A DNA stretch of 64,000 nt, from contig JAJPKO010000016.1 of the NCBI GenBank assembly GCA_021323655.1, positions 1 to 64,000 on the forward strand, read 5' to 3'. This document shows positions 11,574-29,898 of the stretch, piece by piece. The first letter of the stretch is position 1. The number at the start of each line of letters is the position of its first letter. Source of the stretch: Acidobacteriaceae bacterium (GTDB lineage Bacteria > Acidobacteriota > Terriglobia > Terriglobales > Acidobacteriaceae). The notes under the pieces are model-generated. The model was not told the DNA's origin. It ran no database searches and saw only the letters and a list, made by a program, of their open reading frames with translations. Position numbers and translations under genes: made by a program.

Positions 11574-11586
11574 GGGAGCTCTCCAT

Positions 11587-12309
11587 TCAGTCAATTGCCA
11601 CAACAAGGCACGTAATATTGTCGAAGCCGCCTGCGCGGTTGGCCGCCTCGACCAATTGATGACAGGCGTGTTCGGGCGAAAGCGATGCGACGAGGATGCT
11701 CAGGATCTCAGAGTTCGAGAGCATACGGGTCAGGCCGTCGGTGGCAAGCAGAAAGCAGTCGTCACGCTTTGCCTGCACCGATGTGACTTCAGGGACAACG
11801 AAATCTCCTGCGCCAAGGGCCTGCGTGAGGACGCCGTCGAGTTCCGGCGCTTCGCCCTGCAGCCCGCTGCGAAGGCGTGCGGCGAGCAGCGAATGGTCTT
11901 CGGTCAGGCGATGCAGCGCGCCATAGCGAAGCAGATAGGCGCGGCTGTCTCCCACGTGCGCGATCCACATGCGGCTGCTGTCAAGGTGCGCGGAGACAAT
12001 GGTGGTGCACATGCCGGAGTAGGCCGACTCGCGTGCGGCGGCGTTGCGCAGGGCGTGGTTTGCCTTCTGCACGACACGATGCAGAGAAGAGCCGCCGCTC
12101 GCGCCATTGACGCCAGGATGGAAATAGTCGAGCACGGTATCGAGCGCCAGCCGGCTGGCTACCTCCCCGGCCTGGTTGCTGCCTACCCCGTCACATACAA
12201 CAAAGAGGCCGCGATCTAGATCAAAGCCAAACGCATCCTCATTCATTCGCCGTCTGCGGCCTGGATGGCTTTCGCCTGCCGCACGAATACGAATCTCCAT
12301 AGCGCTCAT
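11587..12309 (-). CDS. PP2C-family Ser/Thr protein phosphatase of the T6SS operon
   Basis: A 240-residue PPM/PP2C phosphatase, the presumed antagonist of the Ser/Thr kinase encoded at 30.4 kb, comparable to PppA in the threonine-phosphorylation control of Pseudomonas T6SS. Metal-binding motifs are visible: RRRMNEDAFG (N-terminal Asp), VVCDGVGSNQAGE (DGxG), HVGDSRAYLLR, LLATDGLTRML (DG) and GGFDNITCLVV (DN). The length is that of a catalytic domain only, without membrane anchor, so it acts in the cytoplasm. Its ATG overlaps the stop of the FHA gene (ATGA at 12306-12309), implying translational coupling; vgrG begins 13 bases downstream. Confidence 0.92.
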   Translation of the reverse strand: MSAMEIRIRAAGESHPGRRRRMNEDAFGFDLDRGLFVVCDGVGSNQAGEVASRLALDTVLDYFHPGVNGASGGSSLHRVVQKANHALRNAAARESAYSGMCTTIVSAHLDSSRMWIAHVGDSRAYLLRYGALHRLTEDHSLLAARLRSGLQGEAPELDGVLTQALGAGDFVVPEVTSVQAKRDDCFLLATDGLTRMLSNSEILSILVASLSPEHACHQLVEAANRAGGFDNITCLVVAID

Positions 12310-14444
12310 GCCTTTTTGCGCTCATAGCCCAGACGCAGTACGACGGTGCCGCCCAGGTCAATGCGCGAGCTTCTGCCCAGGGGAACAAGCGTGCCCGGGG
12401 GCACGGCCTTGCCGTCCACCTTTGTGCCGTTCGAGCTGTTCATGTCCTTGAGCAGAAGGTATCCATTTTTCTTCACCACTTCGCAATGGAAGCGCGAAAC
12501 CATATGCTCCACATCGCGGACGACGATGTCATTTTTCTGCCCACCGTCCTGCGCGATTGCCCCAATGCGGACCACGTCGCGGTCGAGCGGGTATTTGCGG
12601 CCCTGATCGAGCCCCTGCACCACTTCCAGCACAGGGTGGCGGCTGAGCCTGCGGCGGCGGAAGAAGAAGAGCGATCCTCCAAACAGGGCAGCGAGGCCCG
12701 CTGCGCTTCCGGCAAAGAGCAATCTGCGGCGCAGGCCGAGAGCGTTATCAATACGGCGGCGCAGGTCATTCACAACCGGGTTGGAAGGCGCGATCCTCTC
12801 CGCAATGCGAAGCGTACGGTCTGCTTCATGAATGTGACCACCCAGGAAGCTGGCCTCTGCCGATGCAAGGCTGCTCTGCAACTGTTGTTCGCTTGCGCTG
12901 GCTTTCTGTGTCTCTGCCTGCTGGGCATGTTGCTGCTGCTCCTGCTGGGCCTGCTGCTGCGCAAGTTTCTGCTGCGCGTCTTTGTAGCCCTGGATGGCGG
13001 CAGCATTAGACGGATCTATCTTGATGACCTGGTCGTACAGGTCCATCTGCTCCTGCGGGTCATTGCTTTTGACGGCGCGGCTGATCAGCTCTGCGGAGCG
13101 CGAGCGCACTTGCGGAGACGGAACGCCGAGCGCCGCGGCAAGCTGGGCCGCCTGCGTTGCCGTGTCTGCAGAAGCGCCGGAGGCAGACTGCGCCTTGGCT
13201 GAGGCAAGTTGCGGCTCTGGCTGGTCTTTCACAATGCCGCCCATGCTGGCGGGAATGGAAACGGCAGCAAGCGACTTGATGTCCACAGCGTGCGCGTCTT
13301 CAGGAATTTCAAGGCTGAGCACTCCTCCGCCGATGCGTGCGCCTTGTTTGAGAGAGGCCGCTTCAGGCCGAGTGTCATGATACGCGGTGGAAAGCGTGCC
13401 ATTCAGGAATATGAAGATAGAACGCTCATTCACAATCACGGTTTCAAGAACATCGCCCTTACTGTTGTCTACAGGCTTACGCGGACGGGCCAATGAACCA
13501 ATCTCGCCGATGTGGCTGCCGATTCCCAGCGGATAGCCGGTACCAATGCTGCCTGACTGGTTGCGAATGGAAAGCGCGGGATACACGCCCTTCTTGTTCG
13601 GGTCCACATTCGCAGTGGCCCGGAACTGAAGAACGAAATTGTCATACTGCGATTCTGTTTCAATCGCGCCCGGCCCTTTTTCGCCGTGGATGGCGCCGGA
13701 CTTTACGCTCCAGTCCGCGCTGTGTGGTTTATTGGATCCGCTAAATACGTGGAAGAGCCCTTTGCTCGGTTGATGCTGATATGGAACATTCTTCCAGCCC
13801 GAAAGGTCTGAGCCATCAAAGATCTGCTTTACATTCAGAGGCCGTGCACGCAGATTGCGCAGGTCGAGTGCTGCACCGCGTGTGGACTCGAAGCCAATGT
13901 ATCCGGCGCGAGAGGAGTCATCGTGAATGTCTGCGGTGGGGCGGCCATCCAGTTCTACTCGGATGTGGTTGCCATTCGCCTCCACAGTAACGCTGTGCCA
14001 CGTATTCAGCGAAATGAAAGTAGGCTGCGCCGCGGCGCGTTTCACAATGCTTCCTGCCGGCCAGTCTTTCACCGTGTCAGACAGGGGAATGCGGTAGCCG
14101 CTCTCTGTGGGCTCGCCGTCATGGCTGGCGCGAATGCGCAGCGTCGCGCCGGAAGGTGTGGCGTTGATGCGGTAGTCGAACTTCAGAACAAAATCACTCA
14201 GCGGATACGCAGTGAAAATGCTGCGCGTGTCGCCCATGTCAGAAGTCAGAGCGTCCTCTTTTGTCTGCCAGTTCCCGTTGGCGCTCCACCCAGTGAGCGT
14301 TCCGTCATATAGACGCAGCCAACCCTCTTCCGCCTCAGTAGGCGTGAGCGGTTCTGAAAAAAGAGAGTATTTGCAGCATATGGATATGCCGAGAATCAGG
14401 AGAATGATGCCTGGCCAGCTCTTCCAGCGTTCTCTTGCACGCAT
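12306..14444 (-). CDS. Two-TM protein: two DUF1080 domains, Gln-rich coiled coil, C-terminal FHA
   Basis: A 712-residue protein with an unusual domain order. A TM helix at about 12-30 is followed by two concanavalin-like DUF1080 domains (about 40-200, starting GWLRLYDGTLTGWSANG, and about 205-395, starting IFDGSDLSGWKNV), a short TPR-like stretch (MDLYDQVIKIDPSNAAAIQ), a Gln/Ala-rich coiled coil, a second helical repeat (HIHEADRTLRIAERIAPSNP), a TM helix (about 588-608, followed by FFFRRRRLSRH), and an FHA domain (about 620-712: VVRIGA, VSRFHCEV, NSSNGTKVDG). The topology should place DUF1080 in the periplasm and FHA in the cytoplasm. FHA binds phosphothreonine, so it is a likely kinase target or reader, like Fha1/TagH. 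It lies between clpV (2-base gap) and PP2C (overlap). Confidence 0.82.
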   Translation of the reverse strand: MRARERWKSWPGIILLILGISICCKYSLFSEPLTPTEAEEGWLRLYDGTLTGWSANGNWQTKEDALTSDMGDTRSIFTAYPLSDFVLKFDYRINATPSGATLRIRASHDGEPTESGYRIPLSDTVKDWPAGSIVKRAAAQPTFISLNTWHSVTVEANGNHIRVELDGRPTADIHDDSSRAGYIGFESTRGAALDLRNLRARPLNVKQIFDGSDLSGWKNVPYQHQPSKGLFHVFSGSNKPHSADWSVKSGAIHGEKGPGAIETESQYDNFVLQFRATANVDPNKKGVYPALSIRNQSGSIGTGYPLGIGSHIGEIGSLARPRKPVDNSKGDVLETVIVNERSIFIFLNGTLSTAYHDTRPEAASLKQGARIGGGVLSLEIPEDAHAVDIKSLAAVSIPASMGGIVKDQPEPQLASAKAQSASGASADTATQAAQLAAALGVPSPQVRSRSAELISRAVKSNDPQEQMDLYDQVIKIDPSNAAAIQGYKDAQQKLAQQQAQQEQQQHAQQAETQKASASEQQLQSSLASAEASFLGGHIHEADRTLRIAERIAPSNPVVNDLRRRIDNALGLRRRLLFAGSAAGLAALFGGSLFFFRRRRLSRHPVLEVVQGLDQGRKYPLDRDVVRIGAIAQDGGQKNDIVVRDVEHMVSRFHCEVVKKNGYLLLKDMNSSNGTKVDGKAVPPGTLVPLGRSSRIDLGGTVVLRLGYERKKA

Positions 14445-14446
14445 GG

Positions 14447-17107
14447 CTAGTTTGTCCTCGCTACTTCTTCAGCCTGATCAGCTCCCACCAGGCTGAAACT
14501 CAAACTGTCTTCCTCTTCAAGCGCAATGGCGACCTTGCCGCCGGCCTGCGGCGCTTCTGAAAGCAGCAGGCTGGCCAGCGGTGAGAGCACCAGCTGCTGC
14601 ATGGTCCGCTGTGCCGGGCGCGCTCCATATTCCGGGTCGTATGCCTGCCGCGCAAGATACGCAATGGCTTCAGGACTTACGTCCAGTCCAAGCTGGCGAT
14701 CCTCTTCCAGTTTGCGCGCCAGCTTGCCAAGGTGCAGCTTCACAATGCGCTCCAGCTCTGCTTCAGAAAGCGGATCGAAGGCAACGATCTGTCCAATGCG
14801 GTTGTAAAGCTCCGGCCGCAGGCTCGCGCGGACCACTTCCAGGATGATGTTCTTGCGCTCTTCCGGATCTTCACTGCTGGCCATGGCTTCGCGTACTCCC
14901 AGGTTCGAGGTGAAGATGACGATGGTGTTGGAGAAATCGCAGAAACGGCCTTTCGCATCTGTCAGGCGGCCTTCATCGAGCACGCCAAGCAGCAGGTCAA
15001 GAATCTCAGGATGGCCCTTCTCTACCTCATCAAACAAAACGACGGAGAAAGGCGACCGCCGCACCTGCTCGGTAAGGAATCCCCCTTCATCTGAGCCGAC
15101 AAGCCCTGGCCGCGAGCCAATCAGGCCGGAGACAGAAGACTTGTCTTTGTATTCGCCCATGTCAATCCGAATCAGGGCATGCTCATCGTCAAAGAGTGCT
15201 TCTGCCAGCGCCTTCGCCAATTCGGTTTTGCCTACGCCAGTAGGCCCTACGAAGAGGAAGGAATTGGGCGTCTGGCGCAGCTCCAGATCAGCGCGCATGC
15301 GGCGGGCTGCCTCAGAAACAGCGCTCACGGCCGCCGATTGTCCAAACACGCGTGCAGACAGACGTTCTTCAAGATGCAGCAGGCGTTCGCGCTCGCTCTC
15401 AAGCAGGCGCTGGATCGGGATGCCGGTGCGTTCACCAATGACCTCAGCAATGTGCTCCGCTGTGACCTCGGTGGAAATCATGGGATTCTCACTCGCGGCG
15501 CTCACCTGTGCTTCAAGATCAGCGCGCTGCTGCTCCAGATACTTAAGGCTTCCATAACGAATCTCTGCCGCCTTCGCGACGTCGCCCGATGCCTCGGCCT
15601 GCTTGAGTACCCGGTTTTGTTCTTCAATCGCTGCCACTGTTTTTTGCAGCTCAGCCGATGCTTGCCGGGACCGCTGCCAGGCTTCCGTCTGCGCTGCTAC
15701 TTGCGGAGCAAGCTCGGCAATCTCTTTTTCCAGCGCTGGAATGGCCTTTTTCTGTTGCGCGCTTTGCGGACCATTACGCAGCGCTTCAAGCTCTGCGCGC
15801 TTGCGGGTAAGCAGACGTGCCTGCTGGTCAATGTGCGTCGGCGTGGATTCCTTCTGCATGCGCAGGCGCGATGTGGCCGCGTCAATCACGTCAATGGCCT
15901 TGTCTGGAAGGAAGCGGTCGCGAACATACCGGCGCGACAGCTTGACGGCCGCGTGCAACGCATCATCTGAAAGCCGGACGCCGTGAAAGGTTTCGTATCT
16001 CTCACGCAGGCCGCGCAGAATGGAGAGCATCGCCTCGTCATTCGGCTCTTTTACCTGCACCTGCTCAAAGCGCCTGGCCAGTGCACCGTCTTTTTCAATT
16101 CGCTCGCGGTATTCGTCAAAGGTGGTAGCACCCACACAGCGAAGCTCGCCGCGGGCCAGTGCGGGCTTCAGGATATTGGCAGCGTCCATACCGCCTTCCG
16201 TCCCCCCTGCACCCACAAGCTGGTGAAGCTCATCCATAAAGAGGATGATCTCGCCCTTGCGCGAACGCACTTCTTCCACGACGGACTTGATGCGCTCTTC
16301 AAATTCGCCGCGATATTTTGCGCCAGCAACCAGAGCAGGCAGATCGAGCGCGTAGAGTTTGCAATCGCGCAGGCTGTCGGGAACATCTCCGGCAGCAATG
16401 CGAAGCGCGAGTCCTTCGACCACGGCCGTCTTGCCAACGCCGGGATCACCCACCAGCACAGGATTGTTCTTGGTCTTGCGCAAAAGCGTCTGGATCATGG
16501 AACGAATTTCATCATCGCGCCCAATGACGGGATCAATTTTCCCTGCGGCTGCCTCCGCTGTGAGGTCGCGGCCAAAACGTTCGAGTACCTTTTCCGCCGC
16601 AGGAGCGCCAGTAGAACGGGCCTGCTTTTCCGGCTGGAAGGTTTCTTTCAGCGTGCGTTGCGTGCCTTCAATCTTTTCTACCGCCTCTTTTGTGACTCCG
16701 GCTTCGCGCAGGTCCGTGCGAACATCATCGCGCAGATCATTCATGCTCTGGTCCACGGCGGCGAGCACGGCGTCAATCGGCTCCACGGAAGGAGAGTTAC
16801 GCTCGGCGGCAAGAGCAAAGCTGCGCTCCAGCAGATTGCGCAGCGCCTTGGAGGCAACGGGGCGGCGCCCCGGCTCCAGCTTGCCGGAGTTCGCCTTATT
16901 CAACCGTGTGGCCAAAGCGTCGAGCAAAGCTCCTACGGCAATGCCGTTGCGCTCAAGCAAAGCGTACAGACTGCTCTCATGATCGAGCAGCGTATAAAGA
17001 AGGTGTTCGGGCTGAATCAACGCCTGCTGCCGTTCGGCGGCCAGCAGGCGCGCCTGTTCCAGCGCCTGCTCCATTGCATCAGATAGTGCACTTAGGTCTA
17101 ACTGCAT
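14447..17107 (-). CDS. clpV: T6SS sheath-disassembly ATPase ClpV (TssH)
   Basis: A 886-residue class-I AAA+ unfoldase that recycles contracted TssB/TssC sheath. The start at ATG 17107 is preferred (GGAG five bases upstream); a TTG at 17125 would add six residues and overlap tssK. It has a Clp N-domain (about 1-150), AAA-1 with Walker [14 protein letters not shown] and Walker [16 protein letters not shown], a coiled-coil middle domain (about 395-530), AAA-2 with Walker [15 protein letters not shown] and [14 protein letters not shown], and a C-terminal D2-small domain. ClpB is the main alternative, but the location between tssK and the FHA gene in a T6SS operon decides for ClpV. Confidence 0.93.
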
Positions 17108-17117
17108 GCGTGCTCCA

Positions 17118-18884
17118 TTACTCAAGGCGCCGGCGACGTGGGCGGTTCAGCGGTTCTTCCGGTGAGGGCGGCGTGGGTCGTTTGTCTCGTGGTGCCCACG
17201 GCGGCAAGGCATCCTCTGCTGGCTCCGTAGTCACAGCCGGCTGCGCAGGTTCCATCGGCCGCGATGAAGAAAAGCGGCCATTTCCAAGTGGCGGCGGTGG
17301 AGGTGAGTAAGAATCCACGGGCGGCGGCACGCTGGCGGGCCGCACCTTTTCATAGTCCGGCTCCAGGTTACGCACCGTCTGCTCCTGCGTACGACTCGCA
17401 TAAAAGCGGTGCCGGATAAACAGGAGCGCCGTGCGGATGGGATGATAGGCCTGCACGGTAACACGCAAGTCGGTGATCGTCGGCACGTCCGGAGCTTCAA
17501 AGTCGAACTCGAAGTTGTATTGCTCATCGAGCTTCGCTTCTGCGGAAAGGATGATCGCTTCGCGACGGAATCCGGTGCCTTCATTCAGTCGGATCTCCGC
17601 GCTGATGGTGGTGCCGCGCGAGAAGGGAGCGTCCCGCTCGCCCACAAGAATAAGCCGGTAGCGGTCGCGTCCTTCCAGGCGCAATTGCGAGAAGAAGATG
17701 GTCAGCTCGTCGGCCACACCCTGCACACGGCTTGGCTTCGCGGCCAGCTTGTAGAGCACCTTGCCGCCGCGATCGAAGATAAAGTTCATGCCATCGAGCG
17801 ACGGGCTGATGCGGAAGTCAATGTACTTGCCCTCAAGCGCGCGCTCCAGTTTTTCGAGCGCAGTGAGCGATTGCAACGCCGAACGCACTTCCAGGCTGAG
17901 ATCATCCGCCAGCTTCAGGGTACGCGTCGCATCCAGTTGCCGTTTCTGCCCTTCAATCAATGAGACGAGCTCAGTTTCGCCGGTTTCACGCAGCGTTTCG
18001 TAATACTGTTGCATGTTTGGGGCGAGGCTGAAGAAGGTGGCTGACTGATGCAGCAGCTTGCGCACCTGAATAAAGAAGCTCTGCGGCGATTGCGTGCGGT
18101 CCAGAATGCTGTACGCAATCTCCTCAAGCGCCAGTACCATGCGCTCGGCAAACTGTGTGGCGTCGCGGTCGACCTCAGTCTCAATGCCGCGCTCGGTAAA
18201 CAGCACCATAAATTCGCGCATGGCGCGATGCAGCTCTGCGTACCCCTGGGAAAGCCGCTGAATCGCTTCGACAATCCGGCGCCATCCCGCCATCAATTCG
18301 CTGTGCGCAGAAAGCGTCAGGCACGGTGGAATGTACAGCGGGTCCTTCTCAAAGTGCGCGCCGCTGGCTGGTCTGCGGATGCGAGCAATCGCCAGTGCCC
18401 GCTCCCGTTCGGCGGCCGTTACCTGCAATGCGATCCGATAGCTGTAGGTGCGCTCGCTGCGCATCTGCGGATTAAACTCATCCGCAACACCATCTATCTT
18501 GATACGCTGCGACGGGTCTATGATCACATAGATTTCCGCTTCGGCCACCCCGGCGAGTGCGTCTTTGTCGAACCGTCCAGCGATTGCGCCATCTTCATCA
18601 ACGTCAATCAGAAGGCCAGATGGAGTGAGCCCGCGGCACTGCGTTACAGAAATGTTCAGCGCTTCGCTGTTTTCGTCGAGATAGACAATTGGATCGAGCC
18701 GTACCGCGCCGAGGTCCGGCAACGGCAGACGCACACCGCCGCCAATCAGACCATGTCCGGCGCTCATGTATCGCAGGCCCCAGTAGAACAGCGATTCAAA
18801 ATATTCTTCCAGGCGCAGGAAGTGCTCCGGGGTCAGGAGCATTCCATGTTCCCAATTGACCGATCTCAAACGAAGCGAGTCCAT
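17118..18884 (-). CDS. tssK: T6SS baseplate protein TssK with atypical Pro-rich tail
   Basis: A 588-residue TssK homologue, the baseplate subunit that in canonical systems trimerises and binds the TssL/TssM membrane complex. The family signature at the N terminus is clear: VNWEHGMLLTPEHFLRLEEYF. A helical middle (about 200-350) follows. The usual TssK is about 450 residues; this one has an extra beta-rich C-terminal section (about 360-500) and a final 80-residue proline-rich, positively charged tail (SYSPPPPPLGNG ... RPRRRRLE) that is probably disordered. Since TssL and TssM are not encoded here, the altered C-terminal half may bind a different membrane partner. Downstream clpV begins 10 bases after the stop. 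Confidence 0.82.
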   Translation of the reverse strand: MDSLRLRSVNWEHGMLLTPEHFLRLEEYFESLFYWGLRYMSAGHGLIGGGVRLPLPDLGAVRLDPIVYLDENSEALNISVTQCRGLTPSGLLIDVDEDGAIAGRFDKDALAGVAEAEIYVIIDPSQRIKIDGVADEFNPQMRSERTYSYRIALQVTAAERERALAIARIRRPASGAHFEKDPLYIPPCLTLSAHSELMAGWRRIVEAIQRLSQGYAELHRAMREFMVLFTERGIETEVDRDATQFAERMVLALEEIAYSILDRTQSPQSFFIQVRKLLHQSATFFSLAPNMQQYYETLRETGETELVSLIEGQKRQLDATRTLKLADDLSLEVRSALQSLTALEKLERALEGKYIDFRISPSLDGMNFIFDRGGKVLYKLAAKPSRVQGVADELTIFFSQLRLEGRDRYRLILVGERDAPFSRGTTISAEIRLNEGTGFRREAIILSAEAKLDEQYNFEFDFEAPDVPTITDLRVTVQAYHPIRTALLFIRHRFYASRTQEQTVRNLEPDYEKVRPASVPPPVDSYSPPPPPLGNGRFSSSRPMEPAQPAVTTEPAEDALPPWAPRDKRPTPPSPEEPLNRPRRRRLE

Positions 18885-18899
18885 TTCTTCCTCAATTTC

Positions 18900-19826
18900 T
18901 TACAACGAGCCTGCGCTTTCGCAGCCCTTGCCCAGATAGCTGTTGATCTGCAAACGGCAGTTTCGTTCCGCGATTCCCAAGCGCGGTGCCTGTTCCGGAT
19001 CGAGCACTACCCAGCGCAGTTCGTAATCCAGATGCACCGGCAGCACCAGCGCCAGCAGGCGGTCCAGCAAATCGCGCCCTTCGCTGCCCAGATATTTTTC
19101 GTAAGTAGCCAGCGGAACTGGCCCTATTTCTACGCGCAGATGGGCCATGTCATAAAACGCATCGCCCACAATAAAGTCCAGCCCGATTCGTGATGCTCTT
19201 TCCCCCAGGCGCGTCTTGGTCGGGTGCTTCAGGACTGCGAGCGAATGCCGGAAGGACGACGAGTTTACCGGAAGCCCGAGCACGCGCTCCAGCGCTGTCT
19301 TCACAGCTTCCTCGCTCCCGGCAATCGAAGGCAGATCCAGCAGCAGGAGCGCCAGCCTGTACCAGAGCGAGCGTGGCCACTCCTCCGGAGCAATGCCGAA
19401 AAGGCTGATCCATCGCGCACACGCAGCCAGATTGTCCGGCGCAAGACGCAGCAGCGATGCGCCTTCATACATCCAGTGCGTCAGTTTTTCTAAAGGATCA
19501 TCCAGGACTTCAAGCAGCTCGCGCGTACCTGGCTCGGCTTCACCGCCGCTGTCCCACATGGCCACAGGCAGACTGTGGTGAAAGGCAGGCCCCGCCACCT
19601 GAAGCTCGATCATGCCATCCAGGGCCCCTCCTGGAGCAGGCGACTGACCCACGACAGTGCCATGCGGAACGCTGTGCCACCCGACGGGACGTATGTGGAT
19701 GCGCGAAACGGGGACCTGCAAGCGCGCGAGGCAAGTCAGGGCCGAATGCAGATTGTGCTGAAATCCATGCGTACCTGAAACAAAGTCAGGCATGGTCCTC
19801 GGAAGCGTCACTGGAGCGGCGCTCAT
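18900..19826 (-). CDS. tssG: T6SS baseplate protein TssG with PASTA-like segment
   Basis: A 308-residue TssG/VasB-type baseplate protein, expected to form the wedge with TssF and TssE. The start at ATG 19826 is chosen because it makes an ATGA overlap with the tssF stop; an upstream start at 19847 is less likely. The C terminus shows the TssG-like pattern LGIAERNCRLQINSYLGK. Near the N terminus, VPHGTVVGQSPAPGG followed by MIELQVAG resembles a PASTA repeat (GtVisQsPapG then a beta strand), unusual for TssG. The assignment rests on both sequence pattern and its invariant position between tssF and tssK. Confidence 0.75.
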   Translation of the reverse strand: MSAAPVTLPRTMPDFVSGTHGFQHNLHSALTCLARLQVPVSRIHIRPVGWHSVPHGTVVGQSPAPGGALDGMIELQVAGPAFHHSLPVAMWDSGGEAEPGTRELLEVLDDPLEKLTHWMYEGASLLRLAPDNLAACARWISLFGIAPEEWPRSLWYRLALLLLDLPSIAGSEEAVKTALERVLGLPVNSSSFRHSLAVLKHPTKTRLGERASRIGLDFIVGDAFYDMAHLRVEIGPVPLATYEKYLGSEGRDLLDRLLALVLPVHLDYELRWVVLDPEQAPRLGIAERNCRLQINSYLGKGCESAGSL

Positions 19827-21529
19827 GCAACCACCCCCTGCTTCCACTCAAATTGAATATCGAGGTGCGTGCCGTGTAGCATCCGTGCCTGCAGAAGGCG
19901 CTTCAGCTCCTCCTGCAAAATGGGCAGCTCAATTTCCGGACGCGTGAAGCCGTCCGCATCCAGCGTGATCCAAAGACGTTCCAGGCGATGCAATCCATGC
20001 TCGCCGCGTTCGATTTCGCTTCTTACATCCACGGCCAGAATGCGGCGGTCAAAGCCCAGCGCGGTGGATTCAAGGTCGCTCCGCGTGACAATGCGTCCAC
20101 GCGTCAGGAGCGCGTTTGAGAAGCGGCGGCGCGCGTCAGAATAATCTTCGTCATCGGTGCCGCCTGCGGCTGCGGTCAGATGGTTCACCCGGATCTGATC
20201 AAAAGTTGCGCTACTGGCAAAGCCTGTAATGTCTCCGGGAGCAACCAGATTACCCAGCTCGCCATTTGTGAGCCACAGACGAATGTTTGCGCCTGTCTGT
20301 CGCGTGCCGTCGGGTCTAAGGCCGGGGTGCAGCGTGATCCTCTCTTTGGTGATCTCGTACCAGCCTTCTGCCGGGTTCGCAGTATTTCCCGGAGCTGAGT
20401 GGTAAATCTCATTGTCCAGACCGGAGACCGAGAGCGGCGCGACCAGCATCTGCCGCAGACCATGATGGCCACGCGTGATCGGCACCGAATAGCCATCCTG
20501 CTCAAAATGCACCGTCTGGTTCAGGCAGAAGAGGTTCGACGCCGTTGTGGCGTGCAGAATGATGCCGTGTATCGCCGTATGCAGCGCCGGCACATTCGCC
20601 GGAAGCGGTACCTTGATCCAGGCGCGCGGCGTCTCAAACCAGGAGCGCAGGTCGTGTCCCGCGAGACGCGAAAGAGGAACATCCAGCAGCCGTGGCACTC
20701 CGCAGAGCAGCTTCCGGTCGTCCACAATCTCCGGAAACAGAAAGGCACGTCCTGCATAAAAACCATCCGGCAAATCAGGAAGGCCCTCTTCTCTCCGCGC
20801 GCGCTGCGAAGATGCAACCTGCCACTCCAGTTGCCGCACACCGCGATGCACGCGATGCGGACGCATCAGTCCCTTGTCGCTTAGATCACCATCTTCTCCG
20901 AAAAACCACCAGGGCTCAGAAATAAGCCCCTGCTGAATCGAGTAGGCCCCTGCGCTTAAATCAAAGAACAACCCATGGTGGCTGAGGTGCGCAGGCCCCA
21001 GATTTTCAACCGCCAGAAAGATGGCGGGCTGCGGCCCAAGATTCACACGGACAGGATCATACGAAGGACGATACGTTGCGAATGACTCCGAAATGTCCAC
21101 CCCGGGGAGCAGTTGCAGTTGCTGCTCCTGATAGACCAGGGCCAGGGCAATCTGCGCGGGAGAAAGTGCGATGCTCACATCTGTGGCAAAACTCAGCCTC
21201 TCGCCGGTGGCCGCTTTCGCATTCAGTTCAGTGCCGGTTCGCAGTGTTTTGGCGTGCGGCCCGTTGGAGATGAACCGTACGACCGTCTGTGCGGGATGCG
21301 CGTAGCGCCCGGGTAGCTTGATGCCAGCAATCAGATCATCCAGCAGCTTTTCACGAATACGCCCGGTATTGGCATAGACCGATTCAATCTGATGAGCAAA
21401 CGTCCGGAAGATAACAGCAAGCACCGGGTCGAGGACATCCACCGTGATGCCAAAGTCCTTCAGCCGGCGGCGAAAGTCCTCGCGTAGTTTATGGTCAATT
21501 TCAAGAATTCCTGGCGTTTGAAAGCTCAT
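19823..21529 (-). CDS. tssF: T6SS baseplate protein TssF
   Basis: A 568-residue TssF/VasA homologue, the baseplate-wedge protein related to phage gp6/gpJ. It begins with the long amphipathic helix region typical of the family (AVIFRTFAHQIESVYANTGRIREKLLDDLI), has beta-rich middle parts (GPAHLSHHGLFFDL, PWWFFGEDGDL) and the C-terminal gpJ-like signature (SDARRRFSNALLTRGRIVTRSDLE). Its ATG overlaps the tssE stop and its stop overlaps the tssG start, so tssE-F-G are translationally coupled. The length is close to the family norm of roughly 550-620. Confidence 0.83.
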   Translation of the reverse strand: MSFQTPGILEIDHKLREDFRRRLKDFGITVDVLDPVLAVIFRTFAHQIESVYANTGRIREKLLDDLIAGIKLPGRYAHPAQTVVRFISNGPHAKTLRTGTELNAKAATGERLSFATDVSIALSPAQIALALVYQEQQLQLLPGVDISESFATYRPSYDPVRVNLGPQPAIFLAVENLGPAHLSHHGLFFDLSAGAYSIQQGLISEPWWFFGEDGDLSDKGLMRPHRVHRGVRQLEWQVASSQRARREEGLPDLPDGFYAGRAFLFPEIVDDRKLLCGVPRLLDVPLSRLAGHDLRSWFETPRAWIKVPLPANVPALHTAIHGIILHATTASNLFCLNQTVHFEQDGYSVPITRGHHGLRQMLVAPLSVSGLDNEIYHSAPGNTANPAEGWYEITKERITLHPGLRPDGTRQTGANIRLWLTNGELGNLVAPGDITGFASSATFDQIRVNHLTAAAGGTDDEDYSDARRRFSNALLTRGRIVTRSDLESTALGFDRRILAVDVRSEIERGEHGLHRLERLWITLDADGFTRPEIELPILQEELKRLLQARMLHGTHLDIQFEWKQGVVA

Positions 21530-21917: not shown

Positions 21918-22364
21918 TTAGTTGCTGATGGTGACGTCCTTGAAGTTCTGCTGGTTCAGGGCAGGTTCCACTTCCAGCACCAGCATGTGGTTGACTCCGA
22001 TGTGATCATTGTCGGAGGGCTGACCATTCTGGTACGGGTTCAGAGTGTGGAAGCTGGAGATCCAGCCTTTGAAGTTGTAGCTGACCAGTGCATCCTGCTT
22101 CGCGTCATCTTTCCAGAACTCGACCTTGATGTCGCGGATCTTGTCCCGCGTGACCACATTGGAAAGATCAAACAGCTTCTTCAGCGTGCTGAATGGCAGG
22201 TTCTGATCATCGTGAAAATCAACATATGCTTTGATGGACGTGGTCAGGCTCCCCATCTGGGGCATGCCGGCACGGTCTTTCTCGGTTTGCAGTGCGACGG
22301 AGACGGAAACACAGTCAAACTTATTCCCATCAATCGTAAGGGTGCTGCGGTTCGGTGATGCCAT
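21918..22364 (-). CDS. hcp: Hcp/TssD tube protein, paralogue B
   Basis: A 148-residue inner-tube protein of the Hcp/TssD type; hexamer rings stack inside the sheath and are expelled. It is a beta-barrel sequence beginning NRSTLTIDGNKFDCVSVSV and ending NHMLVLEVEPALNQQNFKDV. It is an obvious paralogue of the upstream gene (22383-22862), with blocks such as FHDDQN, PFST, KLF, NVVTRDKIR, WKDD, KQDALVSY and EPALNQQNF shared; this copy has a shorter loop before the last strands. The two copies are separated by 18 bases. Confidence 0.82.
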   Translation of the reverse strand: MASPNRSTLTIDGNKFDCVSVSVALQTEKDRAGMPQMGSLTTSIKAYVDFHDDQNLPFSTLKKLFDLSNVVTRDKIRDIKVEFWKDDAKQDALVSYNFKGWISSFHTLNPYQNGQPSDNDHIGVNHMLVLEVEPALNQQNFKDVTISN

Positions 22365-22382
22365 GTCTGTCCTGTCTCCTTT

Positions 22383-22862
22383 CTAGTTGCTGACCTGCAC
22401 GTTCTGGAAGTTCTGCTGGTTCAGAGCAGGTTCAATGTCCAGTACAAGCAGATGGTTGGTGTTGCTGTAGATGCCGCTCACAAAGTTGTCCTCGTCGCTG
22501 TTCGTCGCCGTTGCGCGGACAAAATCCAGTGGGTTGCTTGTTTCAAAGCGGCGGATCCAGCCATTAAAGCTGTAGCTGACCAGCGCATCCTGCTTGGAAT
22601 CGTCTTTCCAGTACTCGATCTTGATCGAGCGTATTTTGTCGCGCGTTACGACATTTGCGAGATTGAAAAGCTTTTGGACTGTGCTGAAGGGAATGTTCTG
22701 GTCATCATGAAAGTCCGCCCACACGCGGACTGAAGTTGCCAGACTCCCCATTTGTGGTACACCCGACCGGTCTTTTTCCGTGCTGAACCGGACACTCGTA
22801 GAGATGGCATCAAACTTCGTGCCATCAATCGTAACTGTCGTGCGATATGGTGATGCTGCCAC
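22383..22862 (-). CDS. hcp: Hcp/TssD tube protein, paralogue A
   Basis: A 159-residue Hcp/TssD-type tube subunit. GTG 22862 is preferred to the longer TTG start (22880) because AGGAGA sits six bases upstream and the N terminus then aligns with paralogue B (ASPYRTTVTIDGTKFDAIS). Compared with B it has an insertion of about ten residues in the loop preceding the last strands (ATNSDEDNFVSGIYSNT). Tandem Hcp genes may build mixed tubes or carry different effectors; which applies here is unknown. Confidence 0.82.
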   Translation of the reverse strand: MAASPYRTTVTIDGTKFDAISTSVRFSTEKDRSGVPQMGSLATSVRVWADFHDDQNIPFSTVQKLFNLANVVTRDKIRSIKIEYWKDDSKQDALVSYSFNGWIRRFETSNPLDFVRATATNSDEDNFVSGIYSNTNHLLVLDIEPALNQQNFQNVQVSN

Positions 22863-22892
22863 GCGTTCTCTCCTACTCAACAGAATTGTGGA

Positions 22893-23369: not shown

Positions 23370-24722
23370 CTATGCCTGCTTCGCTTCAGGATTCGTCGGT
23401 TTTGAAAATTCAGGCACATCAATTTTCAACACAAATGTTTCCGCAGGGCCCGTCGGCATCACGTTCAAGGTAATATCGCAGATGCCTTGCATGCGCTTGT
23501 TCGAATCCTTGTCCACAAATAGGTCGTAGCTGAGGATCGTCCCCTGCTCCACCTGTTCATCCAGCAGGCGCTTCAGGGGCGCCTCAATCTGCTGGTCCAT
23601 AAAGTCGCGCGTCAGTACCTGTCCGGCGACCTGCAACAGATAGTGACGGCAGCACCGCTCAAGGTATCGCAAAATTCGATAGGACGTGAAAAATTTCAGC
23701 ACACCGTAAGGATCGTCCGCCTGCGTGCGGCAGCCGAAGAAGCACAGATGATTGTCGGCATCGCGAATCACCGGGATCAGCTGCCGCTCCATGCTCAGGT
23801 GCTCCATCTCGCCAATCAATGGCTCAATGCGCGCCTTCTCCGCCCCATGCACTCTGCCAAATCGTGATCCCACCGGCCCCTGCGCCAGCCCCTGCGCATC
23901 ATCAGCGCGGGCAACAGCCCCGGCGAATGCCACCGATGGCGGCGCGTAGAGGCCATCCATCACCTGGTCCTTCTCAAACCAGTACGGCGATCGAAGCTGC
24001 AAGTATCCCATCAGGCAAACATCCGCTGCGGCCTGGTCTTCAGGCCGCTTCAGGAATTCATACTTACCGCCGGGAAGGAAATTCCGCTCCACGTTCTTGA
24101 AAGACTTCTCGTCATCCAGGTCGCTGATCAGCAACATGCCCCACTGGTTTGCAATCTGCTCAAACTTTTCACGAATGCTTTGCGGATAAAATCCCGGCAC
24201 AACCAGATTGCAGATATCGTCGCGAAAATTGAAGTTGTCATTGCGGGATTTCACGAAATTTTCAATCGCCGCGACGCTCATGCTGAAGATGTCCTTCATG
24301 GCCGCAACATCGGCGTTCAGAATGTACACCTCAACCGGCTTGCGCACCTTCCCGTCCATCACCTTGCTGTTCTCAAAGAACAGTTGCAATTGACGGTAGC
24401 TGCGCTCAATGGGACGAATCTGCTCAAACACCTGCGCCAGCAATTCGTCCCGCACGCCTTCCGCTTTCTCAATCTGCTGCTGCAGCTTCTGGACCGTGTC
24501 GTTGTAGCTGTCCGTCTCAGACAGCAGCTGGTCAAAATTCGTCAGTTGCGACAGAAATTCTTTCGCCGACTGCGGAGTAAAGATGCTGGCCAGCTCGCGT
24601 TTTTCGTCCGTAAGCGCCGGGTGCAGGTCCGCAAAAATGTCCTGCAACAGCTCGCGTGCAGGGGAATCTGCAATCAGCTCTTCGGTGGTCTTGGTGCGCG
24701 TGATCGTTTGCGTATCTGCCAT
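23370..24722 (-). CDS. tssC: T6SS sheath large subunit TssC
   Basis: A 450-residue TssC/VipB homologue, a contractile-sheath building block that pairs with TssB. Recognisable parts are the N-terminal helical region (LSQLTNFDQLLSETDSYNDTVQ), the core VEVYILNADVAAMKDIFSM, PGFYPQSIREKF, the segment FLPGGKYEFLKRPEDQ, and the C-terminal handshake domain (SYRILRYLERCCRHYLLQVAGQ ... SYDLFVDKDSNKRMQGICDITLNVMPTGPAETFVLKIDV). It is somewhat shorter and more divergent than proteobacterial TssC (about 490-500). Its ATG overlaps the tssB stop (TAATG), ensuring equal translation. Confidence 0.88.
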   Translation of the reverse strand: MADTQTITRTKTTEELIADSPARELLQDIFADLHPALTDEKRELASIFTPQSAKEFLSQLTNFDQLLSETDSYNDTVQKLQQQIEKAEGVRDELLAQVFEQIRPIERSYRQLQLFFENSKVMDGKVRKPVEVYILNADVAAMKDIFSMSVAAIENFVKSRNDNFNFRDDICNLVVPGFYPQSIREKFEQIANQWGMLLISDLDDEKSFKNVERNFLPGGKYEFLKRPEDQAAADVCLMGYLQLRSPYWFEKDQVMDGLYAPPSVAFAGAVARADDAQGLAQGPVGSRFGRVHGAEKARIEPLIGEMEHLSMERQLIPVIRDADNHLCFFGCRTQADDPYGVLKFFTSYRILRYLERCCRHYLLQVAGQVLTRDFMDQQIEAPLKRLLDEQVEQGTILSYDLFVDKDSNKRMQGICDITLNVMPTGPAETFVLKIDVPEFSKPTNPEAKQA

Positions 24723-25225
24723 TACTGTTTACCCCCGTTTGCAACCCGCTCCAGCTCGCTGCGCAGCTTGCCCAGCGCCGCAATGATTTCCTTGCGCTGC
24801 GCCTCATTCGCCCACGCCCGCCGCACAGTCGGCAGCTTCCACCGGTCTTTCAGCCGGTACAGCAAATCAATATTCGTTTTCAGATCTGCAATGTCGTTCC
24901 GCAGATACTCAACTTCGCCGTCCTCTTTGCGTATCTCCTGCTTTTTCTGCAGGTTTTCCGGATCGAAATCCTTGATGCTCCGGAACCGGAACTCGGCCTT
25001 GAATTCGGCCTCATCTTCTCCAGCATGCCCGGTAAACTTCAGCTTCGGCTGAAACTTACGGAACGCGTCGTTCAGGTCTTCGACCTTCACCGGCTCTTCG
25101 TTTTCTGAAGCCGCCTCAGCCCCGATCCTTTCCGGCGTCATGGGCAACATCATGGCGCACGTAGAGGTAGGTACTTTTCTTACGTGCGGCGTAACTCCTT
25201 TTCTGACGACTTTAATCAGCGGCAT
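24722..25225 (-). CDS. tssB: T6SS sheath small subunit TssB
   Basis: A 167-residue TssB/VipA homologue. Family features are FKAEFRFRSIKDFDPENL followed by a helical C-terminal half (DIADLKTNIDLLYRLKDRWKLP and EIIAALGKLRSELERVANGGKQ). The N terminus is atypical, with two short basic segments (MPLIKVVRKGVTPHVRKV) and an acidic linker where a proteobacterial TssB normally begins with SIQ.KL. The stop overlaps the tssC ATG; the upstream VWA gene ends 34 bases away. Confidence 0.85.
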   Translation of the reverse strand: MPLIKVVRKGVTPHVRKVPTSTCAMMLPMTPERIGAEAASENEEPVKVEDLNDAFRKFQPKLKFTGHAGEDEAEFKAEFRFRSIKDFDPENLQKKQEIRKEDGEVEYLRNDIADLKTNIDLLYRLKDRWKLPTVRRAWANEAQRKEIIAALGKLRSELERVANGGKQ

Positions 25226-25259: not shown

Positions 25260-26696
25260 TTATTTCTTCCCCTGGGAAGCTGCACTCGTCAGGTCAGGCC
25301 GAGGCCTGACTTGTGTGACCTGGGCCGCCGAGCGCTGCGGCGAACTGGCTCCTTCCGCATCAAACCCGTTCGGAGTGCTCTTTACCTGCACGCCTGAAGC
25401 CTGCACCGAGGCTTCCTTGCTCCAGCGGCGCCGTGTGCCCGAAGCTGGAAGGCCATTGTATTCACCCCGCCAAGCAATGCGCGGCACCCAGAACCATAGC
25501 AGCAACAATATTACGCCGAGCCCGCAAAATACCAGAATGCCGCGCAAAACGACGGACCATCCGGAAATTGCCGGGGGTTCTACAGACGCTAGTGCCTCCA
25601 GTGCCTCGCGGCCCAGATGCCCCTCATACAACGGAAAGCCCATCGCTGGTGGAACATAGGAAATCGTCTGGCTCGCCAGGTTCGTTCCGCCCAGCAGGTG
25701 CAGGTTGAAAACAAACTCCGCATTGCGCGCTGCCAACGAATGCCGGTCCGTCACCGGAGCAAGAAACGCAATCTCCAGGTCAGCTGGATGCACTGGGGCA
25801 GAAGAGCGGAACACCTGGGCCAGCTGCGCCGGATCGGACGCCAGAAAGTACCGCGTGGAGAGGCGCTTCAGGGCCTCCGCATCAATATCATTAGCATTCC
25901 CAAAACCAATTCCAATCACGTCGTATCCGGCATCGCGGACCTTCGCCGCTGCCTGTTCCAGCCCCAGCGGCCCGTCAAGCAGCACTGGATCGTCGCCATG
26001 GAAGACTTCGTTCTTGCCATCGGTCATCACGATCAGCTGCGCCGTCAGATTGCTTCGCAGCGTGCCCTTCTTCTCCAGCCGTGCAAGCTCCGCATTCAGC
26101 GTGTCCACTCCTGTGAAGACTGCCTGGTACAATGCCGTGTTGTTCTTTGGCCCAGGATCGGGCAGTGCATTCAGTTGCGCCACAGCCTGTTCCCGCCTGG
26201 TGGTAAACACAGCCGACTGGATCGTTGGCACCACATGATGGCTCTCAAACGGAACAATCGCTACTTCATCCACGCCGTCCTGCATCGTGGCCAGATAGTT
26301 TTGAATGGCCTGCTTGGCTGCGGTAAAGCGGCTGGTCCCCGGCGCGACCGTTTCATTCATGCTGCCGCTGATGTCAATTTCGATCAGCACAATGTCTGGC
26401 CGCGCAATGGCATCGCCACCCCCAGTTGCCTTTACATAGAACGGCGTAATCGTGCCGCTGGATGTCTGAATGGAAACAGCCTGCGTCAGCCGGTCCTGCG
26501 GCGGCAGAAGTACCCCGGCAGGAAGACCGTTGTGGTCTACTGGACTTAAATTGACGGTAAAGCAAGGGACCAGCGTCACCGGAGCGCAGTCATGCAGAGC
26601 AACCGGTCGTGTCTGGCGCAAAGCCACCGGGGGTGCCGCAACCGCATTTACAGCGGCAGCGAACAGAATGCAGGACAGGAGCGCGCCTTTCTTCAT
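25260..26696 (-). CDS. Membrane-anchored VWA-domain protein of the T6SS operon
   Basis: A 478-residue protein with a cleavable-looking signal peptide (MKKGALLSCILFAAAVNAVAA), a von Willebrand A domain with an intact MIDAS (DISGSMN, then a downstream Thr and MTDGKN, about residues 105-300), a beta-sandwich region (about 300-370), one TM helix (VVLRGILVFCGLGVILLLLWFWV) and a roughly 80-residue charged cytoplasmic tail. The VWA domain is therefore periplasmic. In Pseudomonas the T6SS kinase PpkA carries a VWA domain too; here the kinase and VWA are separate genes. It may substitute for part of the missing trans-envelope complex. ATGA overlap with the upstream FHA gene. Confidence 0.85.
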   Translation of the reverse strand: MKKGALLSCILFAAAVNAVAAPPVALRQTRPVALHDCAPVTLVPCFTVNLSPVDHNGLPAGVLLPPQDRLTQAVSIQTSSGTITPFYVKATGGGDAIARPDIVLIEIDISGSMNETVAPGTSRFTAAKQAIQNYLATMQDGVDEVAIVPFESHHVVPTIQSAVFTTRREQAVAQLNALPDPGPKNNTALYQAVFTGVDTLNAELARLEKKGTLRSNLTAQLIVMTDGKNEVFHGDDPVLLDGPLGLEQAAAKVRDAGYDVIGIGFGNANDIDAEALKRLSTRYFLASDPAQLAQVFRSSAPVHPADLEIAFLAPVTDRHSLAARNAEFVFNLHLLGGTNLASQTISYVPPAMGFPLYEGHLGREALEALASVEPPAISGWSVVLRGILVFCGLGVILLLLWFWVPRIAWRGEYNGLPASGTRRRWSKEASVQASGVQVKSTPNGFDAEGASSPQRSAAQVTQVRPRPDLTSAASQGKK

Positions 26697-27646
26697 TGCT
26701 CCCCCTGCTTTCTGGTGGTAAAGCGCAGCGCAGTCCGGCCAATCAGAATATCGTCGGCTTCGGTCAGCTCCTGTGATGTGGTGACTGTCTTCCCGCGTAC
26801 CCTCAGCACATATTTCGCAATGCCTGCAGGTCCGCCCGCATCTGGATGCCGCGCAATATAAAAGCGCCCTTCTTTGGAAAAGAGCACTGCATGACGGGCC
26901 GCCATCGAAGCATCAGGGATGAAAATTTCTGCGCCCGGCTGAAAGCGCGTCTCAGATTGCGAAGTCGCCAGATTGCCGACAACGTAGGTTTCCTCATGCT
27001 GCAATTCCCAATACTTGTTCGCGCGGCCATACTTGCTCTGTGCGCGCGCATCGGCGCTGCTGATGAACTGCACTGCTCCATCGCGAATCAACAGCGGAGC
27101 CAGCCCTGCTCCAAAACCAATTCCAGCACCCGTCAACATAAGCCCGGCCGCCTGACAGAGTTCTGGCTGGTGTGAGCCAAAACCAACAAATAGTAATCCT
27201 CCCAGCAAACCGCCCGCAAGACCTCCGGTATAGGTGTGCAGGATTCGTAATTTGTTCGTCGTCAGCCAGCGAGAGCCAATTCCCAAACCAAGGATGGAGG
27301 CGGCCAGCGCCCAGCCAGCCAGCCGGTACAGTACCGGAGATTCCGCAGAGACATTCGCGCGCAGAAACCAAAGCACCACAGCGGCGATCAAAGCAGACGA
27401 GATGGCGATAAGAACACCAAGGCCGATCGTCCTCCAGCGGAACGACCGCCCGGAAAAACGGTCCAGTTGCACAAGCAGAAATGGAATGAGAAGGACCGCA
27501 ACCAGCCCAAGAAGAAGCGTATCTGCCGCCCAGCCGGCAGCGGATGTCTGTATCGCTGCGCCAACGACAGCCTGGATGCCCCATGCCACGAGCCCGGCCA
27601 ACGCGCCTGAAAGGGAGGAAAAATATATCAGACGAAGGAAATCCAT
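26693..27646 (-). CDS. Six-TM protein with C-terminal FHA-like domain, first gene of T6SS operon
   Basis: A 317-residue integral membrane protein. About six hydrophobic helices are visible in residues 1-195 (e.g. TLLLGLVAVLLIPFLLVQ; GVLIAISSALIAAVVLWFL; AGWALAASILGLGIG; GGLAGGLLGGLLFVGFG). A cytoplasmic C-terminal domain (about 205-317) has FHA features: YVVGN, IFIPDASMAARHAVLF (in place of S-R-H), FYIARHPD and VRGKTV; the usual G-R/S-x-x-H/N-G signature is partly changed, so phosphothreonine binding is plausible but not assured. It is the promoter-proximal gene and overlaps the VWA gene by four bases. It may be the inner-membrane platform that recruits phosphorylated partners. Confidence 0.75.
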   Translation of the reverse strand: MDFLRLIYFSSLSGALAGLVAWGIQAVVGAAIQTSAAGWAADTLLLGLVAVLLIPFLLVQLDRFSGRSFRWRTIGLGVLIAISSALIAAVVLWFLRANVSAESPVLYRLAGWALAASILGLGIGSRWLTTNKLRILHTYTGGLAGGLLGGLLFVGFGSHQPELCQAAGLMLTGAGIGFGAGLAPLLIRDGAVQFISSADARAQSKYGRANKYWELQHEETYVVGNLATSQSETRFQPGAEIFIPDASMAARHAVLFSKEGRFYIARHPDAGGPAGIAKYVLRVRGKTVTTSQELTEADDILIGRTALRFTTRKQGEQ

Positions 27647-28904: not shown

Positions 28905-28913
28905 AAACGAACC

Positions 28914-29633: not shown

Positions 29634-29635
29634 CC

Positions 29636-29896: not shown

Positions 29897-29898
29897 CC

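What the first reader, a model, noticed from the sequence alone, without database searches (positions are those of the whole stretch)
12306..14444. FHA protein with two periplasmic DUF1080 domains
The order TM, DUF1080, DUF1080, TPR-like/Gln-rich coil, TM, FHA predicts a trans-membrane sensor whose periplasmic face has two concanavalin-like sugar- or envelope-binding folds and whose cytoplasmic face reads phosphothreonine. DUF1080 is normally found in secreted sugar-acting proteins. In a T6SS lacking TssJLM this could anchor the apparatus to the cell wall.
Basis: partly seen in the sequence, partly recalled or inferred. Interest (0 to 1): 0.75.

Follow-up and report, generated by a model that had tools for sequence, protein, structure and literature searches.

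The report
Membrane protein of unusual bacterial injector
A soil bacterium's toxin-injecting machine lacks the usual parts that hold it in the cell envelope, and this gene encodes a membrane-spanning protein with two sugar-binding-type domains outside and a signalling-type domain inside that may be one of the replacement parts.

Summary
Window 12306-14444 (-) encodes a 712-aa protein with two DUF1080 (PF06439) domains, each above Pfam's cut-off alone, a helical TPR-like stretch, one clear transmembrane helix and a C-terminal FHA domain. Two corrections: the first hydrophobic segment looks like a cleavable signal peptide in most relatives, and "reads phosphothreonine" is doubtful. The arginine critical for phosphothreonine is replaced in 9 of 9 fused proteins and in a relative lacking DUF1080; 12 of 12 other FHA frames from nine Acidobacteriota loci keep it. 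Signature residues of free-standing tandem-DUF1080 proteins are also lost, so catalysis is unlikely.

The gene belongs to a syntenic T6SS locus in Acidobacteriaceae; full-length protein and the locus's TssC occur in the same 6 of 396 genomes. TssM and TssL are absent genome-wide in 6 of 7 carriers; the seventh has a separate classical T6SS. The locus has two further membrane proteins (multi-pass; vWA), resembling in outline, not homology, the Bacteroidota complex TssNQOPR. My best reading: part of a third, unrelated T6SS membrane complex. That is inferred, not shown. A phosphorylation-linked regulator is the main rival. A ubiquitin-like conjugation operon (E1, RING, Ubl, E2) with a kinase adjoins the locus.

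The parts
12306..14444 (-). signal peptide/TM - DUF1080 - DUF1080 - TPR-like helices - TM - FHA protein, 712 aa
14355..14411 (-). N-terminal hydrophobic segment, residues 12-30; signal peptide in most relatives
13836..14327 (-). DUF1080 domain 1, residues 40-203
13245..13835 (-). DUF1080 domain 2, residues 204-400
   Evidence: 41.4 bits against cut-off 26.8
12735..13115 (-). TPR-like helices and Gln-rich long helix, residues 444-570
12666..12722 (-). transmembrane segment, residues 575-593, within a continuous predicted helix 556-598
12318..12644 (-). FHA domain, residues 601-709; phosphothreonine arginine replaced, SRFH and NGT kept
11587..12309 (-). PP2C phosphatase, next gene downstream
   Evidence: NCBIfam NF033484 E 1.8e-57, below its cut-off
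14447..17125 (-). ClpV/ClpB-type ATPase
17118..18884 (-). TssK
   Evidence: PF05936 E 8.6e-10, TIGR03353 E 4e-15 below cut-off
18900..19847 (-). TssG
   Evidence: PF06996 E 8e-15
19823..21529 (-). TssF-like baseplate protein
   Evidence: weak NCBIfam matches TIGR02243 and TIGR03359
21526..21888 (-). small gene in the place of TssE; name by position only
   Evidence: no informative family match; conserved in synteny
21918..22880 (-). two Hcp-like small proteins (21918-22364, 22383-22880); name by size and position only
   Evidence: no informative Pfam match; conserved in synteny
23370..24722 (-). TssC of the PF17541 (Bacteroidota-like) type
   Evidence: E 2e-23
24722..25225 (-). TssB
   Evidence: PF05591 E 3.9e-5, at the cut-off
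25260..26696 (-). membrane protein: export signal, vWA domain, TM 382-400, cytoplasmic tail with an invariant Thr
26693..27646 (-). multi-pass membrane protein (called FHA2 here), about five to six TM; possible degenerate FHA at the C-terminus
   Evidence: (FHA E 0.038, below cut-off); single-sequence model too poor to use
27798..28904 (+). E1-like ThiF protein
28914..29633 (+). membrane + RING-like protein
   Evidence: Prok-RING_2 E 0.0011, below cut-off
29546..29896 (+). ubiquitin-like (YukD-like) small protein; ORF extends 5' of the likely start
   Evidence: YukD resemblance is my reading, no Pfam test
29893..30435 (+). E2 ubiquitin-conjugating-type protein
   Evidence: UQ_con E 2.5e-7
30375..31403 (+). 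Ser/Thr protein kinase
   Evidence: Pkinase E 1.5e-38

Best explanation
The protein is one of three inner-membrane proteins (multi-pass FHA2, vWA protein, DUF1080x2-FHA protein) that together stand in for TssJLM as the membrane complex of an Acidobacteriota T6SS. Proposed mechanism: it is exported by a signal peptide, crosses the inner membrane once, and places two lectin-like DUF1080 sandwiches in the periplasm, where they bind envelope glycan or partner proteins without catalysis. The TPR-like and long-helix stretch next to the membrane makes assembly contacts. The cytoplasmic FHA domain, which has lost the phosphothreonine arginine, works as a docking or ring domain towards the baseplate, as the FHA domain of PrgH/YscD does in type III secretion. 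Shown: domains, fold, synteny, co-occurrence, absence of TssL/TssM, residue losses. Inferred: topology, complex formation, ligand, docking partner.
For: Synteny: FHA2-VWA-TssB-TssC-Hcp-like-(TssE position)-TssF-TssG-TssK-ClpV-DUF1080FHA in the window and in 5 of 5 relatives whose whole locus was fetched; two more (L018, L019), held only from TssB on, agree from there. In the same 396-genome phylum sample the full-length DUF1080-FHA, the TssC lineage and full-length FHA2 fall in the same six genomes, FHA2 also in G375. TssM (PF06761) and TssL (PF09850) are absent in 6 of 7 carriers; G116 has them at 5.03 Mb, far from its locus at 0.22 Mb, which also shows the search works in this family. 22 of 208 Acidobacteriota genomes have TssM; none of the 22 has a TPR-TM-FHA match or a full-length FHA2 match. 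Distant G375 has FHA2 next to VWA, and a TPR-TM-FHA protein without DUF1080 beside T6SS genes of classical type, and no TssM hit. Only these three proteins of the window's T6SS core have membrane segments by hydropathy. Parallel: TssN (five TM and a cytoplasmic domain) and TssR (vWA-like) in the TssNQOPR complex, all five essential (PMC10781749, passages). FHA arginine lost 9 of 9 and in G375, kept 12 of 12 in other FHA frames; substitution abolishes FHA binding in Fkh1 (PMC11326605, passage); PrgH FHA unlikely to bind pThr yet needed for assembly (PMC3635987, passages).
Against: No interaction, localisation or mutant data exist. FHA2 shows no profile relation to TssN. TssJ was not searched. 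No outer-membrane component was identified. A kinase and a PP2C phosphatase sit in clade A loci, which favours regulation. SRFH and NGT of the FHA remain, so phosphopeptide binding by another geometry is possible. DUF1080 is missing in the G375 version, so the tandem domains are not needed for the core role. The G375 genome is a fragmented draft (about 950 contigs, 90% complete), so its lack of TssM is weak evidence, and its FHA2-VWA contig is not physically linked to its T6SS genes.
Confidence: 0.5

Rival explanations
1. It is a transmembrane regulator of T6SS firing, analogous to the threonine phosphorylation pathway: the periplasmic DUF1080 pair senses envelope or neighbour-cell glycan, and the FHA domain, with the locus-encoded kinase and PP2C, controls assembly.
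For: Kinase and PP2C present in the clade A loci: window, G097, G127, G066, 4 of 4. PP2C also beside the TPR-TM-FHA gene in G375. SRFH and NGT motifs kept. The vWA protein has an invariant Thr in its cytoplasmic tail.
Against: The phosphothreonine arginine is lost in all members. In clade B (G129, G116, L018, L019) no kinase or PP2C was found in the DNA held, yet the FHA is conserved; kinases elsewhere in the genome could still serve. TagH model TIGR03354 scores 31.1 against a cut-off of 120.25.
Confidence: 0.27
2. A T6SS-linked periplasmic glycan-binding or wall-docking accessory protein that improves anchoring but is not a core part of the membrane complex.
For: DUF1080 fold and similarity of domain 1 to CBM66 (Z 19.5, rmsd 2.3, 154 aligned; phmmer E 1.2e-4). 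The G375 counterpart lacks the DUF1080 pair.
Against: Strict co-occurrence and fixed place after clpV fit a core part better than an optional one.
Confidence: 0.15
3. A periplasmic 3-keto-glycoside enzyme tethered to the membrane, near the T6SS by chance.
For: PF06439 membership; named DUF1080 enzymes are 3-keto-glycoside hydrolases/hydratases (PMC9007349 passages; structure titles).
Against: In domain 2, 12 of 54 columns conserved in at least 10 of 11 free-standing proteins are kept in 0 of 9 fused ones, among them HDP and the Q of QxN; in domain 1, 8 of 39. Fixed T6SS linkage.
Confidence: 0.03

Closest known systems
Bacteroidota T6SSiii membrane complex TssNQOPR (PMC10781749)
   Same: T6SS without TssJLM; PF17541-type TssC; a multi-pass protein with a cytoplasmic domain, a vWA-fold component and periplasmic beta domains encoded in the locus
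   Different: No TssN detectable by family search or profile comparison; FHA and DUF1080 domains instead of a ubiquitin-like domain and PKD domains; the paper says T6SSiii is found only in Bacteroidota
T3SS SctD/PrgH/YscD inner-ring protein (PMC3635987)
   Same: Secretion membrane-complex protein with a cytoplasmic FHA fold and poorly conserved phosphothreonine residues; PF16697 also hits here
   Different: Reverse order: in PrgH the FHA is N-terminal (recalled), here it is C-terminal; periplasmic domains differ
TagH/Fha of T6SSi threonine phosphorylation pathway
   Same: T6SS-linked FHA with kinase and PP2C nearby in clade A
   Different: FHA frames near TssM in Acidobacteriota keep the GR arginine and TagH's model does not reach its cut-off here; that TagH is soluble is recalled
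Free-standing tandem-DUF1080 secreted proteins, and 4jqt (BT3469)
   Same: Two consecutive PF06439 domains, 24-30% identity to the window protein
   Different: No TPR, TM or FHA; they keep HDP, QxN and NSG motifs that the fused proteins largely lost; fused and free-standing sets are separated by one branch, support 100/99

Membership tests
DUF1080 / PF06439 domain family | Profile score above Pfam cut-off for each domain alone | tested here: met
   75.8 and 41.4 bits against 26.8
DUF1080 / PF06439 domain family | Concanavalin-like beta-sandwich fold | tested here: met
   pLDDT mostly 85-96; domain 1 to 3hbk Z 21.9, rmsd 2.4, 174 aligned
Tandem-DUF1080 signature of free-standing relatives | Residues conserved in at least 10 of 11 free-standing tandem proteins (HDP, QxN, NSG and others) | tested here: not met
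   HDP and the Q of QxN kept in 0 of 9 fused proteins; of 93 such columns 25 are kept in all nine and 20 in none. Which residues are catalytic was not established
3-keto-glycoside hydrolase/hydratase | Activity on 3-keto-glycosides | not testable with these tools
   needs an enzyme assay
Phosphothreonine-binding FHA domain | FHA profile | tested here: met
   45.2 bits against 20.7
Phosphothreonine-binding FHA domain | Arginine of the GR motif | tested here: not met
   A or G in 9 of 9, S in G375; 12 of 12 control FHA frames keep R
Phosphothreonine-binding FHA domain | SRxH and NGT motifs | tested here: met
   9 of 9
T6SSi with TssJLM membrane complex | TssM (PF06761) | tested here: not met
   absent in 6 of 7 carriers; in G116 present only at a distant second locus
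T6SSi with TssJLM membrane complex | TssL (PF09850) | tested here: not met
   absent in 6 of 7 carriers; in G116 present only at a distant second locus
T6SSi with TssJLM membrane complex | TssJ lipoprotein | not tested
T6SSiii with TssNQOPR membrane complex | TssN (PF17555) | tested here: not met
   0 of 5 carrier genomes; over the cut-off in two of 26 genomes reached through other loci; FHA2 versus TssN profile comparison probability 0.1 on hhalign's percent scale
T6SSiii with TssNQOPR membrane complex | TssC of PF17541 type | tested here: met
   E 2e-23; 9 of 9 plasmid records matched are of Bacteroidota genera (phylum recalled), 22-25% identity
T6SSiii with TssNQOPR membrane complex | TssO, TssP, TssQ, TssR | tested here: inconclusive
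   Pfam scans of the cluster proteins gave no such hit; no genome-wide or fold test; vWA resemblance to TssR is by domain name only
TagH/Fha T6SS protein | NCBIfam TIGR03354 above cut-off | tested here: not met
   31.1 bits against 120.25

The most novel reading that the evidence does not exclude
Acidobacteriota carry a T6SS with a third kind of membrane complex, unrelated to TssJLM and TssNQOPR and built from a multi-pass protein, a vWA protein and a TPR-TM-FHA protein that in Acidobacteriaceae gained a non-catalytic, lectin-like DUF1080 pair, whose assembly is controlled by a locus-encoded ubiquitin-like conjugation system (E1, RING, Ubl, E2) and, in one clade, a kinase and phosphatase.
Probability: 0.35. 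Interest if true: 0.9.

Novelty: new variant of a known kind. Interest (0 to 1): 0.7.

Why it matters
How T6SSs without TssJLM hold on to the envelope is, to my knowledge, worked out only for Bacteroidota. If right, the envelope anchor of this contractile machine was replaced at least twice, each time with a vWA-fold protein and a multi-pass protein with a cytoplasmic domain. It would also show a secreted sugar-enzyme fold turned into a machine part, and an FHA domain used without its phosphothreonine arginine, as proposed for T3SS. The candidate genes are few and occur in a named strain with a complete chromosome (ZG23-2, locus L020), so the idea can be tested directly.

Tried and rejected
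Rejected: chance resemblance to DUF1080 (both domains pass alone; fold match). Rejected: FHA2 as a recognisable TssN. Rejected: an active 3-keto-sugar enzyme as the first choice. Rejected: a canonical phosphothreonine reader as a safe claim.

Led nowhere: single-sequence model of FHA2, mean pLDDT 47, not used. Profile search of FHA2 against PDB sequences found no FHA match, so its FHA label rests on one weak Pfam hit (E 0.038). Plasmid search with the full protein found only DUF1080 proteins, 2 records. Paper searches returned no paper whose listing describes a TssJLM-less T6SS in Acidobacteriota or a DUF1080-FHA protein; only titles, abstract starts and the passages cited were seen. One paper on prokaryotic RING/E2 systems that I recall was not held. 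The catalytic residues of DUF1080 enzymes could not be read from a paper.

Rows dropped: L030 was left out of the 11 free-standing proteins (12 tandem matches were at hand; L030 is the most divergent in domain 1); L032 and L035 were not used; L020 duplicates G116 and was counted once; L103 is identical to L021 and both are rows of the tree. G136 is a partial DUF1080 match with stops and is not counted as a carrier. The six TssM-linked FHA loci were chosen from 22 TssM genomes because an FHA match lay on the same contig within about 10 kb; L122, L125 and L126 came.
Full report
Observation. The ORF at 12306-14444 (-) is a single 712-aa protein. Pfam finds PF06439 (the former DUF1080) twice, FHA, and the T3SS YscD cytoplasmic domain. 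Scanned apart, each DUF1080 domain passes the curated cut-off: 75.8 and 41.4 bits against 26.8. An AlphaFold2 model on 16 rows has mean pLDDT 82 and shows two beta-sandwiches, helices from 444 on, one long helix 556-598 covering the second hydrophobic segment, and an FHA sandwich. pTM is 0.56, so the relative placing of domains is not reliable. Domain 1 superposes on solved DUF1080 proteins (3hbk Z 21.9, rmsd 2.4, 174 aligned) and on the sugar-binding module CBM66 (4azz Z 19.5, rmsd 2.3, 154 aligned); phmmer also links domain 1 to CBM66 at E 1.2e-4.

Topology. Hydropathy marks residues 12-30 and 575-593. By a crude rule a small-residue cleavage site follows the first segment in 8 of 9 fused proteins, weakly in the window protein and not in L018. 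I therefore read the first segment as a signal peptide, leaving one transmembrane helix, with DUF1080 outside and FHA inside. Lysine and arginine flanks of the second segment do not decide the orientation. This topology is inference.

Surroundings. The gene lies in a T6SS locus on the minus strand: multi-pass protein (FHA2), vWA protein, TssB, TssC, a small variable gene, two Hcp-like genes, a small gene in the TssE position, TssF, TssG, TssK, ClpV, the DUF1080-FHA gene, PP2C, a VgrG with VRR-NUC and its TsiV-type immunity protein. Several names (Hcp, TssE) rest on size and place. The order FHA2 to DUF1080-FHA is kept in 5 of 5 relatives whose whole locus was fetched (L008, L010, L012, L014, L016); two more loci (L018, L019) begin at TssB and agree from there on. 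Named relatives are Acidobacteriota: an Edaphobacter MAG, an Acidobacteria MAG and Acidobacteriaceae ZG23-2, whose chromosome length equals that of G116's contig, a genome given as same family as the window's. So the window is from Acidobacteriaceae or close by.

Distribution. In the family sample 7 of 150 genomes matched; one of these (G136) is a partial DUF1080 match and is not counted. In the phylum sample 114 of 396 matched the profile, nearly all by FHA or DUF1080 alone; the full-length protein is in 6. TssC of this lineage is in 6 of 396, the same six. FHA2 matches 8 of 396: the same six, G375, and G340 with a partial weak match over the FHA-like end. A TPR-TM-FHA protein of G375 without DUF1080 matches 7 of 396: itself and the same six.

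No TssL or TssM. PF06761 and PF09850 are absent in 6 of 7 carrier genomes. In the seventh, G116, both occur together at 5.03 Mb, far from the locus at 0.22 Mb. The searches ring in E. coli, and 22 of 208 Acidobacteriota genomes have TssM. None of these 22 has a TPR-TM-FHA match or a full-length FHA2 match; that all 22 lie in the 396-genome sample is inferred from their handles. TssJ was not searched.

The G375 case. In this distant family the TPR-TM-FHA gene and a PP2C gene stand beside TssB-TssC-Hcp-TssE-TssF-TssG genes that read as classical T6SSi (names from my reading of the sequences), and FHA2 and VWA stand side by side on another contig. PF06744 and PF06761 find no TssM there. The genome is 90% complete in about 950 contigs, so this is suggestive only. 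It suggests that FHA2, VWA and TPR-TM-FHA form a unit that can work with two sheath lineages, and that the DUF1080 pair was added later. A tree of the DUF1080 pair puts all nine fused proteins on one side of a branch with support 100/99, so one fusion is not ruled out.

Lost residues. The GR arginine of FHA is A or G in 9 of 9 and S in G375. SRFH and NGT are kept in the nine. In nine other Acidobacteriota loci, 12 of 12 FHA frames keep GR; the search pattern did not ask for R. PMC11326605 (one passage seen) says substitution of this arginine abolishes FHA-dependent interactions. PMC3635987 (passages seen) reports that mutating the corresponding PrgH residues had no effect on secretion, and that deleting the FHA domain gives immature assemblies. 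For DUF1080, 93 columns are conserved in at least 10 of 11 free-standing tandem proteins; 25 are kept in all nine fused proteins and 20 in none, the latter including HDP. I could not establish which residues are catalytic.

Comparison. PMC10781749 (abstract, outline and passages seen) describes TssNQOPR: TssN with five TM helices and a cytoplasmic domain, TssR with a vWA-like domain, TssP with PKD-like domains, all five needed for T6SS function, and T6SSiii only in Bacteroidota. The outline here is alike, and TssC is of the PF17541 type with only Bacteroidota plasmid records matched, 9 of 9 (phylum recalled from the genus names), at 22-25% identity. Yet no TssN is found and FHA2 does not align with TssN. 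I file this as a T6SS variant with candidate membrane proteins of its own, not as a member of T6SSiii.

Ubiquitin-like operon. Divergent from FHA2 lie genes for an E1 (ThiF), a membrane RING-like protein, a small Ubl, an E2 and a Ser/Thr kinase. E1, RING, Ubl and E2 are found beside FHA2 in 5 of 5 relatives with that side held; the kinase and PP2C only in clade A. G375 has JAB, an E2 protein whose N-terminal part reads as a Ubl, a RING-like protein, E1 and PP2C beside FHA2 and VWA. PMC1779556 (passages seen) links YukD-like proteins to ESAT-6 secretion; the passages I saw do not mention a T6SS. What the operon does here is open.

Mechanism and verdict. The best account is a membrane-complex subunit with a periplasmic lectin-like head and an FHA foot towards the baseplate (0.5). 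The main rival is a phosphorylation-linked regulator (0.27). What is shown is anatomy and linkage; complex formation, ligand and function are inferred.

Noticed in passing
27798-31403 (+): Operon with E1-like ThiF, membrane RING-like protein, ubiquitin-like protein, E2 and a Ser/Thr kinase, next to the T6SS; E1, RING, Ubl and E2 conserved in 5 of 5 relatives.
   Followed up: partly
25260-26696 (-): vWA membrane protein whose cytoplasmic tail holds a Thr invariant in 6 of 6, a possible phosphorylation site.
   Followed up: no
9153-11606 and 8182-9135 (-): VgrG with a C-terminal VRR-NUC match (E 0.0013, below cut-off) and a hydrophobic tail, followed by a TsiV-type immunity protein (E 1.4e-42).
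   Followed up: no
7815-8156: Overlapping short frames; one repeats a stretch of letters also in the VgrG protein, perhaps a partial duplication.
   Followed up: no
22893-23348 (-): Fast-evolving small protein between TssC and the Hcp-like genes, no family match; positional counterparts in L008, L010 and L012 share an 'AARxAEQ'-like stretch.
   Followed up: no
L127 and L155 (G375): Distant Acidobacteriota genome with T6SS genes of classical type beside a TPR-TM-FHA gene, and FHA2-VWA beside a JAB-E2-E1-PP2C cluster.
   Followed up: partly
L014, L016: Clade B loci have a metallophosphatase-like gene beside E2 where clade A has the kinase; the name is my reading of the sequence.
   Followed up: no
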